Origin: a virus
IMG/VR virus record: IMGVR_UViG_3300031918_000089
Coordinates: 1 to 35,885 of that record
Reading direction: 5' to 3' (one strand)
Length of the DNA stretch: 35,885 bases
Part shown: positions 30,190 to 33,169 of the stretch, piece after piece
How positions within the stretch are numbered: the stretch's first letter is position 1
Layout: every line of letters starts with the position of its first letter
Notes under the pieces: model-generated
What the model was told of the DNA's origin: nothing
Seen by the model: the letters and a program-made list of their open reading frames with translations, nothing else
Database searches by the model: none
Made by a program: the position numbers and the translations under genes

Positions 30190-30271
30190 AAGTACTCACG
30201 TACTCTCTTTAGCTACATGATGTAGCAAGTGCCTCACTCAATGGAGACGGAGAATGAGTACGTGAGTACTT
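30190..30271 (-). repeat. 16-bp perfect inverted repeat enclosing a nested hairpin
   Basis: AAGTACTCACGTACTC (30190-30205) pairs perfectly with GAGTACGTGAGTACTT (30256-30271). The loop carries GCTACA-TGA-TGTAGC (30212-30226). It fills most of the 140-bp gap between the ssDNA-binding gene (ends 30298) and primase-helicase (starts 30157). No U-run, so not a plain terminator. Possible roles: origin/iteron element or mRNA control structure. Each arm itself has two GAGTAC/GTACTC words. Confidence 0.75.
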
Positions 30272-30648: not shown

Positions 30649-31131
30649 AAGATTTTCCTCCTGTGTTGCGCCTCTTTAATCACTATGAATGTCGGGCGAT
30701 CCCACTCTAGCGTTTTATATCTTAATGCTATAGCATCTTGATAACTGGTAGAAGGACTAGGGAGCAGAGTGCATCAATCGTATTATTAACTTGTATTTGA
30801 TGGTCAACGCAATCCCATCTGGTAACTTATACTGCCTCTGCTAGGCTACTGTATACTGTAGATGCATTTCGATAGCCCTTTTGTATAACAAGACGAGTAC
30901 TGAGTTGCTAAGACTTCCACCTAGCTTTGTGGTTTGGTAGTTACCGATCTAACTCACAAGAGTATTTTATGCTACCACTAGCCTCGCTAGTGCTTTTCAG
31001 CTATAGTAGCAACCTTACGGATTTGTTTCCACACACTATTACTTCACTGTATTAACCACACGGGAATTTTAGGACTGCTTTCCGTCTTTCTGTGCAGTGA
31101 AGTTCATTTGCTCAGTACTCGTCTAATTACT
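30649..31131 (-). ncRNA. Candidate large structured RNA (gene-free 483-bp stretch)
   Basis: No ORF on either strand. Helices on the - strand: P1, a 14-bp perfect helix (31124-31111 with 30904-30891) extended outward to 20 positions with two G-U pairs and one mismatch; P2 9 bp (31103-31095 with 31049-31041); P3 about 7 bp inside P2; P4 5 bp (31010-31006 with 30975-30971) enclosing a GAAA-loop hairpin and a 6-7-bp hairpin; hairpins at 30963-30952, 30945-30936 and 30932-30917. A second domain has stems at 30878-30843, 30842-30836/30769-30763, 30819-30799, a 12-bp palindrome (30736-30725) and GGGATCGCCC (30703-30694). Immediately follows the ATPase stop, precedes the SSB gene. Wobble pairs favour the - strand. 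I cannot assign a known class; ROOL- or GOLLD-like phage RNAs are possible, as is a replication origin. Confidence 0.5.
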
Positions 31132-31878
31132 TTACTGACCTGAGATAGCTTGCCACAACTTGATGAATGTAGGATCAAAGATAGTAGCATCCAGTTTGAG
31201 TCTTGACTTTGCCTGATACTTCTTCTTTGATACTGTGTCCATGCAGTACTTACCTGACATATCGCTGTACATATGTCCTACGATGTCAAAGTACTTACCA
31301 ACCTCACCTGCTAGTTTACCCATAATTAGTGGTAAACCTTTGGTGATCCCTGACTTCTCGTCAGTGTAGAACTGTTCATGCATTGTACAGATGAATGTAA
31401 TTGGTGCATCTGTAAATGCCTGTATTGACAACTTGTTGAGATCACTGATAGCGCCCCAGTCCTGAATCTGTATGTTATCTCTGAATGTTAATCCAGTACC
31501 TAACTTACCGATTGCTTTTCTCTTCTCCTGCTGTATGTCCCAGTTCAACTCTGACCATGTGTCAATAGCAATAGCTTCGAACGGCTTTGTGATCTCTTTA
31601 CCTAAGTACTTAGACCACGCTACAGGATCATTCTTCTGTACCATCTTGTAGATATCATCAAGGTCTTTAAAGCTATCCATGAGGATTGGTACGATGTTAC
31701 CCGTCATACTCTTAGGTAACTGACGGAGTGTCTTGAAACCATTATCAACATCAACTGCTAGTGTATACAGGCATTCTCCTGTAGTTCCTACGAAGTGTGT
31801 TTTGCCACACCCCGGCTCACCATACGCTAGTATATTCAGATTCATTGTCTTGAGATCATCCAGATTGATTAGCTTCAT
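31132..31878 (-). CDS. RecA-like phage ATPase (AAA_24 / Sak4-like)
   Basis: 248 aa. Walker A GEPGCGKT (20-27), a Walker B-like strand in FEAIAIDTWSELNW, and a sensor strand ITFICTMHEQ. The single-domain RecA-like core without a hexameric helicase extension fits the phage AAA_24 ATPases, some of which (Sak4) anneal single strands or load recombinase. It follows the Cas4-like nuclease. Own strong promoter at 31901-31929 with a leader of about 16 nt and GGAGG before the ATG. Confidence 0.85.
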   Translation of the reverse strand: MKLINLDDLKTMNLNILAYGEPGCGKTHFVGTTGECLYTLAVDVDNGFKTLRQLPKSMTGNIVPILMDSFKDLDDIYKMVQKNDPVAWSKYLGKEITKPFEAIAIDTWSELNWDIQQEKRKAIGKLGTGLTFRDNIQIQDWGAISDLNKLSIQAFTDAPITFICTMHEQFYTDEKSGITKGLPLIMGKLAGEVGKYFDIVGHMYSDMSGKYCMDTVSKKKYQAKSRLKLDATIFDPTFIKLWQAISGQ

Positions 31879-31900: not shown

Positions 31901-31929
31901 ATTATACCATACGTGATGTCAATTGTCAA
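31901..31929 (-). promoter_or_regulatory. Consensus promoter TTGACA-N17-TGG-TATAAT
   Basis: TTGACA at 31929-31924, TATAAT at 31906-31901, 17-nt spacer, with a TGG just before the -10 (extended). A perfect match to the vegetative promoter. The predicted start near 31894 gives a very short leader to the ATG at 31878. It drives the recombination-replication run from the RecA-like ATPase on. Confidence 0.9.
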
Positions 31930-32847: not shown

Positions 32848-32997
32848 TTACACTCCTTCGCAATTTAAGTAATCATCTGTAGGTGACATGCTAGAGCATA
32901 CTATTTTTCCTGTTATGTCACACATTGTGTCACCATCACCAATGTACTGACCATTAGGACAAGTGAAGCAATCTTTAACCTTCTTCTTCTTCGCCAT
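32848..32997 (-). CDS. Small Cys-rich protein (49 aa)
   Basis: 49 aa starting MAKKKKVKDCFTCPNGQYIG, with Cys at 10, 13, 26, 34 and 46. A CxxC knuckle plus further cysteines suggests a zinc ribbon. GGAGG precedes the ATG; the stop lies 2 nt before the nuclease start. Too short for the usual ORF cut-off. Function unknown. Confidence 0.7.
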   Translation of the reverse strand: MAKKKKVKDCFTCPNGQYIGDGDTMCDITGKIVCSSMSPTDDYLNCEGV

Positions 32998-32998
32998 G

Positions 32999-33169
32999 TT
33001 AGAATACCTCCACATAGAGCACATAATTAAGAATAACCTGATAAACTTCTGCTCTGCAATCTGCCGCTGTATGATATCCTTGATACTTCTTAGATCTATA
33101 ATATTTCCCGACTATACTCTTGATCGGAGCACCATGCTTGTAGTCATAAAGGATCTCACTGTCTGACAT
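32999..33169 (-). CDS. Small hypothetical protein (56 aa)
   Basis: 56 aa: MSDSEILYDYKHGAPIKSIV, then GKYYRSKKYQGYHTAADCRA and a final EVYQVILNYVLYVEVF. A basic/aromatic small protein with an amphipathic C-terminal helix. It overlaps the upstream gene's end by 14 nt and ends one base before the next start region. GAGG precedes the ATG. Not recognised. Confidence 0.6.
   Translation of the reverse strand: MSDSEILYDYKHGAPIKSIVGKYYRSKKYQGYHTAADCRAEVYQVILNYVLYVEVF

What the first reader, a model, noticed from the sequence alone, without database searches (positions are those of the whole stretch)
30649..31131. Large structured RNA candidate between the RecA-like ATPase and SSB genes
In a genome where genes overlap or abut, 483 bp without an ORF is exceptional. 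The - strand folds into a domain closed by a 14-bp perfect helix (31124-31111 with 30904-30891) that extends to 20 positions through two G-U pairs and one mismatch. Inside are a 9-bp helix, a GAAA-capped hairpin in a three-way junction, and three short hairpins. G-U pairs replace Watson-Crick pairs at three places on the - strand (two in P1, one at 30843/30878), where the + strand would have A-C mismatches. One inner helix fits the + strand better. The start lies directly after the ATPase stop. Size and phage setting recall ROOL/GOLLD-type RNAs, but I cannot match a consensus.
Basis: partly seen in the sequence, partly recalled or inferred. Interest (0 to 1): 0.9.

Follow-up and report, generated by a model that had tools for sequence, protein, structure and literature searches.

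The report
New phage structured RNA family
The gap next to a phage single-strand-DNA-binding-protein gene encodes a real folded RNA of about 244 bases; seven otherwise unrelated phages carry versions of it among their tRNA genes with matched base-pair changes, it belongs to no catalogued RNA family, and what it does is not yet known.

Summary
The RNA covers 30886-31129 (244 nt), not 483 bp; the rest (30649-30885) folds no better than shuffled sequence. An exact 18-base search from its interior found seven homologues in other IMG/VR phages, plus a contig almost identical to the window. The eight distinct RNAs share five helices: 24 of 30 base pairs show compensatory changes and 99% of cells pair, against 30-42% in slid controls. 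The 14-bp closing helix is one of these helices. All seven distant homologues lie among phage tRNA genes: 30 of 30 detected tRNAs are on the RNA's strand, some 0-10 nt away. Little else is shared between these loci. No Rfam family matches, so it is not ROOL or GOLLD by that test, although it lives in the same kind of place. It was not found in cultured phages. Every copy ends in a hairpin with the geometry of a tRNA T-arm. Best guess: a stable RNA cut out of tRNA-type transcripts that acts on tRNAs or translation. The family is near certain; the function is inference.

The parts
30886..31129 (-). The RNA (244 nt, P1 to P1)
   Evidence: Homology to L070-L074, L076, L077; covariance model hit 120.9 bits at 30908-31049 (window was in the seed)
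31111..31129 (-). P1 closing helix, 5' arm (perfect core 31111-31124)
   Evidence: Inverted repeat; all 8 aligned P1 pairs show compensatory changes in 6 sequences
30886..30904 (-). P1 closing helix, 3' arm (perfect core 30891-30904)
   Evidence: As for the 5' arm
31104..31108 (-). J1/2, AAUGA (A/U-UGA in homologues)
   Evidence: UGA invariant in all 8 (A7)
31095..31103 (-). P2 5' arm ACUUCACUG
   Evidence: 8 of 9 pairs with compensatory changes, 100% of cells paired
31041..31049 (-). P2 3' arm CAGUGAAGU
   Evidence: As for the 5' arm
31050..31094 (-). P2 loop with variable sub-domain (GAC...GUCCUAAAAUUCCC...GUGGUUAA)
   Evidence: Alignment A6; length varies widely between homologues
31010..31040 (-). 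Core AAUAGU-GUG-UGGAAACAAAUCCGUAAGGUUG; GUG (31032-31034) is P4 5' arm
   Evidence: Conserved block (A8). GGAAACAAAUCCGUAAGG is invariant by selection; the rest is not
30929..30931 (-). P4 3' arm CAC
   Evidence: CAG/CUG, CUG/CAG, GUG/CAC and AGG/CCU among the 8 sequences
30971..31010 (-). P5, variable hairpin (GCUAC/GUAGC)
   Evidence: Sequence differs in every homologue, pairing seen by eye only
30939..30954 (-). P6 hairpin AGUUA/UAACU
   Evidence: Compensatory GAGUU to GAAUU in L077; 97.5% of cells paired; RNAalifold predicts it
30908..30924 (-). P7, T-arm-like hairpin CUAGG-UGGAAGU-CUUAG
   Evidence: 5 bp, closing G-C, 7-nt loop UNNRANN, exactly one in each of 8 RNAs; 4 of 5 pairs with compensatory changes
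31901..31929 (-). Likely operon promoter, TTGACA-17-TATAAT with TG
   Evidence: 12 of 12 consensus match, nearest candidate upstream; none inside the RNA

Best explanation
SHOWN by comparison: window 30886-31129 (-) encodes a member of a conserved structured noncoding RNA family of phages, with covarying helices P1, P2, P4, P6 and P7. Members are normally encoded among tRNA genes, on the same strand. No Rfam family matches. INFERRED: it is a trans-acting stable RNA, not a cis element of one gene. In tRNA islands it is released from the tRNA precursor by the enzymes that trim the adjoining tRNAs. In the window phage it is part of the Sak4-like ATPase / SSB / primase-helicase transcript, and its unusually long P1 (14 perfect pairs) protects its ends and could serve as a double-strand cleavage site that frees it. 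INFERRED, weaker: because it travels with tRNA genes and ends in a T-arm-like hairpin (P7), with a second UGGAA motif after P4, it works on tRNAs or translation, for example by binding tRNA elbows or acting as a tRNA decoy. My separate estimates: real RNA family 0.97; trans-acting excised RNA 0.65; tRNA-directed function 0.3. The confidence below is for family plus trans-acting excised RNA.
For: Homologues beyond the selected 18-mer (local blastn E 1e-7 to 1e-19). Covariation: A7, 30 pairs, 24 with changes on both sides, 99.1% paired vs 69% in shuffles and 30-42% when slid; on unedited MAFFT alignment A8, 8 of 13 pairs, 99% vs 80% and 22-50%. RNAalifold predicts P6 and P7 on unedited A8, and P1, P2, P6 and P7 on the curated A7. 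Setting: 30 of 30 strict ARAGORN tRNAs on the RNA's strand; flanking tRNA gaps of 2 and 6 nt (L072), 1 and 7 nt (L077), 0 nt downstream (L070), measured to the ends of the extracted stretches. Apart from the RNA and tRNAs, only the TROVE gene region of L072/L076 aligns between the loci. One copy per phage record. Promoter upstream, none inside. P7 geometry in all 8.
Against: No transcript data for any member. In the window there is no tRNA nearby, and excision is only inferred. L072 and L077 alone do not fold clearly better than shuffles (z -1.0, -1.4), so the fold may need tertiary contacts or a protein. Two of eight RNA-bearing records carry a Ro60-like protein close by, which may point to another role. 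Only 8 sequences, chosen by one exact 18-mer, and P1/P2 strands in A7 were extracted by hand.
Confidence: 0.62

Rival explanations
1. ROOL/GOLLD-like RNA: a phage tRNA-island RNA that assembles into homo-oligomeric particles.
For: Same habitat: phages, tRNA islands (PMC12286853). Multi-branched, closed by a terminal helix.
Against: No match to any Rfam family, those two included. Shorter (188-320 nt against more than 800 for many GOLLD). No kissing loops tested.
Confidence: 0.15
2. Phage Y RNA: partner of a Ro60/Rsr (TROVE) protein, acting as tether, gate or tRNA mimic in RNA quality control.
For: TROVE proteins 1-2 kb from the RNA in L072 and L076. P1 joins the two ends. Bacterial Y RNAs are described as tRNA mimics and reported in mycobacteriophages; a Listeria phage has abundant RNAs near an Rsr-like gene (PMC12282133).
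Against: No TROVE match in the window or in the other five RNA-bearing records, three of which are 110-160 kb, although most may be incomplete. Regions around the Ro gene of five cultured phages and the first 70 kb of Listeria phage P100 lack the RNA. Rfam has no hit.
Confidence: 0.15
3. Cis element of the ATPase-SSB operon: an RNA processing or translation-control stem for SSB; a second 16-bp hairpin flanks SSB on the other side and shares GAGTAC(G)TGAG.
For: Position directly upstream of SSB; 16-bp hairpin at 30190-30271, z -5.9; shared core occurs in 0.5% of random pairs. T7 has RNase III sites in intergenic regions (PMC9135205).
Against: The homologues are among tRNA genes, not upstream of SSB. 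The relatives with the same operon lack the RNA. P1 sequence is free to vary, so the shared core is probably chance. It may still be a by-function in this phage.
Confidence: 0.08
4. DNA-level feature: replication origin, binding site or MITE-like insertion with terminal inverted repeats.
For: Terminal inverted repeat; both strands fold equally well.
Against: Compensatory changes in P2, P4, P6 and P7, conserved loops and a constant strand relative to tRNAs. The repeat-pair search in genomes found only an unrelated Acidimicrobiia repeat.
Confidence: 0.02

Closest known systems
ROOL and GOLLD RNAs
   Same: Structured noncoding RNA of phages, commonly in tRNA islands, function unknown (PMC12286853)
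   Different: No sequence or model match; smaller; different conserved core
Bacterial Y RNAs (Yrl, Ro60/Rsr partners)
   Same: Ends paired in a terminal stem; reported tRNA resemblance; a Ro-like gene lies nearby in 2 of 8
   Different: No Rfam match; no Ro gene seen in 6 of 8 records; larger and multi-branched
tRNA-elbow-binding RNAs with T-loop pairs (RNase P specificity domain, T-box stem I; own knowledge)
   Same: T-loop-type hairpin P7 and a second UGGAA motif
   Different: No Rfam match; no evidence that the two motifs interlock; no 5' leader position before aminoacylation genes

Membership tests
ROOL / GOLLD (Rfam) | Match to the Rfam covariance model | tested here: not met
   No ROOL or GOLLD match for the window, L070-L074, L076 or L077
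ROOL / GOLLD (Rfam) | Encoded in phages, often near tRNA islands | tested here: met
   7 of 7 distant homologues have tRNA genes within 532 nt on the same strand; the window itself has none
ROOL / GOLLD (Rfam) | Homo-oligomeric RNA cage | not testable with these tools
   Needs native mass measurement or cryo-EM
Bacterial Y RNA | Match to an Rfam Y RNA model | tested here: not met
Bacterial Y RNA | Encoded with a Ro60/Rsr (TROVE) protein | tested here: inconclusive
   TROVE in 2 of 8 RNA-bearing phages (G003, G007), close to the RNA; none in the other six records, some fragments
Bacterial Y RNA | Binds Ro | not testable with these tools
   Needs a binding assay
Conserved structured RNA (generic) | Compensatory base-pair changes in homologues above controls | tested here: met
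Group I/II intron, RNase P, tmRNA, tRNA, riboswitch | Match to Rfam model or ARAGORN | tested here: not met
   all four aligned ATPase proteins end normally before the gap, so no host exon is interrupted

The most novel reading that the evidence does not exclude
A previously undescribed class of phage RNA that travels with tRNA genes and uses T-loop-type hairpins to grip tRNAs, protecting or redirecting them during infection (for example against host tRNA-cutting defences).
Probability: 0.2. Interest if true: 0.95.

Novelty: categorically new. Interest (0 to 1): 0.82.

Why it matters
A phage RNA class with this much covariation, absent from Rfam 15, is a new piece of basic phage biology. Its placement in tRNA islands puts it beside ROOL and GOLLD, whose functions are open questions, and suggests that such islands carry more than tRNAs. 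The single-copy, compact form (188-320 nt) makes it easier to study than those larger RNAs. Caveat: large published lists of candidate RNAs (for example PMC8040213) could not be checked sequence by sequence, so an unnamed earlier sighting is possible.

Tried and rejected
ROOL/GOLLD and any other Rfam family: no match. Same-synteny relatives (L010-L013, L056): no RNA there, so no covariation test was possible on that route. MITE or transposon: the paired-repeat pattern in 84,980 genomes hit only an unrelated Acidimicrobiia repeat. RNase III processing stems around SSB: my leading idea until, demoted once homologues appeared in tRNA islands. tRNA remnant: no tRNA by ARAGORN, even relaxed. BLAST of the RNA, of homologues and of a consensus against phage records, and of the RNA against plasmids: only chance hits. 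A model search of 296 genomes of one bacterial phylum (that of an Acidimicrobiia MAG) found nothing, uninformative without a positive control. Y RNA: partial support only.

Full report
What was claimed and what is there. The 14-bp perfect inverted repeat and its extension are in the sequence as described. Folding separates two halves: 30880-31135 folds far better than dinucleotide shuffles on both strands (z -5.1 and -5.4), whereas 30649-30885 does not (z -0.8 and +0.8). The strand cannot be told from folding energy.

Same-operon relatives do not help. A second IMG/VR contig is nearly identical (10 differences in 19.9 kb, none in the RNA). The next phages with the same order PDDEXK - ATPase - SSB - primase-helicase are at 52-57% identity in the primase-helicase (L010-L013), with L056 more distant. 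None carries the RNA. Their corresponding gap holds small ORFs (L011), a tRNA gene plus a short leader (L013), a transporter-like ORF, a tRNA-like sequence and a leader (L056), or only the leader (L012). This spot therefore seems to take small RNA cargo.

The homologues. An exact search of 2.9 million viral contigs for an 18-base stretch inside the domain, GGAAACAAATCCGTAAGG, returned nine contigs. One is the near-identical contig and one (L075) a chance hit. Seven are true homologues whose similarity runs far beyond the 18-mer, local blastn E 1e-7 to 1e-19. The extracted stretches are 188-320 nt.

Structure. The eight sequences share: closing helix P1; a UGA-containing joint; 9-bp P2 with a large variable loop; the conserved core; a 3-bp P4; a variable hairpin P5; hairpin P6; and a 5-bp hairpin P7 with a loop beginning UGGAA. 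On the hand-extracted alignment A7, 24 of 30 pairs have compensatory changes, 99.1% of 224 cells pair (shuffles 69%, slid 30-42%), and the covariation score is 0.777 against 0.216. P1 and P2 strands in A7 were chosen by eye as complementary, which inflates those two helices. On A8, an unedited MAFFT alignment of the 3' core, P4, P6 and P7 alone give 8 of 13 pairs with compensatory changes and 99% paired against 80% shuffled and 22-50% slid. P4 is CAG/CUG, CUG/CAG, GUG/CAC or AGG/CCU in different phages. RNAalifold predicts P6 and P7 from A8 and also P1 and P2 from A7; it does not predict P4. The 18-mer is invariant by selection and is not evidence. L072 and L077 alone fold little better than shuffles, so it was comparison and not energy that revealed the family.

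Setting. All seven distant homologues lie among tRNA genes, and 30 of 30 tRNAs found by strict ARAGORN are on the RNA's strand. In L072 the extracted stretch lies 2 and 6 nt from tRNA-Arg and tRNA-Leu; in L077 it lies 1 and 7 nt from two tRNA-Ser genes; in L070 it directly abuts a tRNA-Met. Beyond the RNA and tRNAs, only the TROVE gene region of L072/L076 aligns between the loci at the DNA level. Each phage record has one copy. The window phage is the exception: no tRNA, the RNA inside a replication operon with one perfect consensus promoter upstream of the ATPase, and the longest P1.

Known families. Rfam 15 gives no match for the RNA in the window beyond noise, in L070-L074, L076 and L077 at gathering level, in L077/L074 at E<=0.5, or for L072 at E<=10 beyond two noise hits. 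Cultured phages show no match by BLAST. Regions around the Ro gene of five cultured phages and the first 70 kb of Listeria phage P100 give no model hit. ROOL and GOLLD share the habitat (PMC12286853). Two of the eight phages encode a Ro60-like TROVE protein near the RNA, which keeps a Y RNA reading open.

Function. P7 has the geometry of a tRNA T-arm in all eight: 5 bp, closing G-C, 7-nt loop UNNRANN, exactly one per RNA. A second UGGAA follows P4. Linked T-loops are used by RNase P, T-boxes and the ribosomal L1 stalk to hold tRNA elbows (own knowledge). With the tRNA-island setting, the most economical inference is a stable RNA, freed from the precursor by tRNA-trimming enzymes or via P1, that acts on tRNAs or translation. 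This is inference; no transcript or binding data exist here.

Limits. Eight sequences, one selection motif, no expression data, incomplete contigs. Published candidate lists such as PMC8040213 could not be searched by sequence.

Noticed in passing
window 30190-30271 (-): A 16-bp perfect hairpin with a small three-way interior between SSB and the primase-helicase (z -5.9); relatives L012 and L013 have terminator-like hairpins there instead. Its arms share GAGTAC(G)TGAG with P1, possibly by chance.
   Followed up: partly
L012 2915-2978, L013 5458-5524, L056 4608-4696: A conserved leader directly upstream of the SSB gene, GUCGAmGGACnnUAAnC then a hairpin with changing stem sequence then CGGAARG; absent from the window. 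Possibly a regulatory element of the SSB gene.
   Followed up: partly
L072 2117-3760 and L076 1956-3653: Ro60-like TROVE/vWA proteins beside the tRNA island that carries the RNA.
   Followed up: partly
L011 4262-4360, L013 5183-5300, L056 4534-4600: tRNA-like sequences with normal-looking T-arms that ARAGORN does not accept as tRNAs, around the ATPase and SSB genes of the window's relatives.
   Followed up: no
window 32848-33024 (-): Small Cys-containing ORF similar to L072 6490-6350 (38% identity, E 1e-8), upstream of the RNA in both phages.
   Followed up: no
L077 1507-1890: Spo0A C-terminal domain protein inside the tRNA island, suggesting a spore-forming host.
   Followed up: no
L072 8770-8833 (-): Hammerhead type II ribozyme match just over the Rfam threshold.
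   Followed up: no
L056 3716-4504: Membrane transporter-like ORF between ATPase and SSB; by eye resembles a queuosine-precursor transporter, not tested.
   Followed up: no
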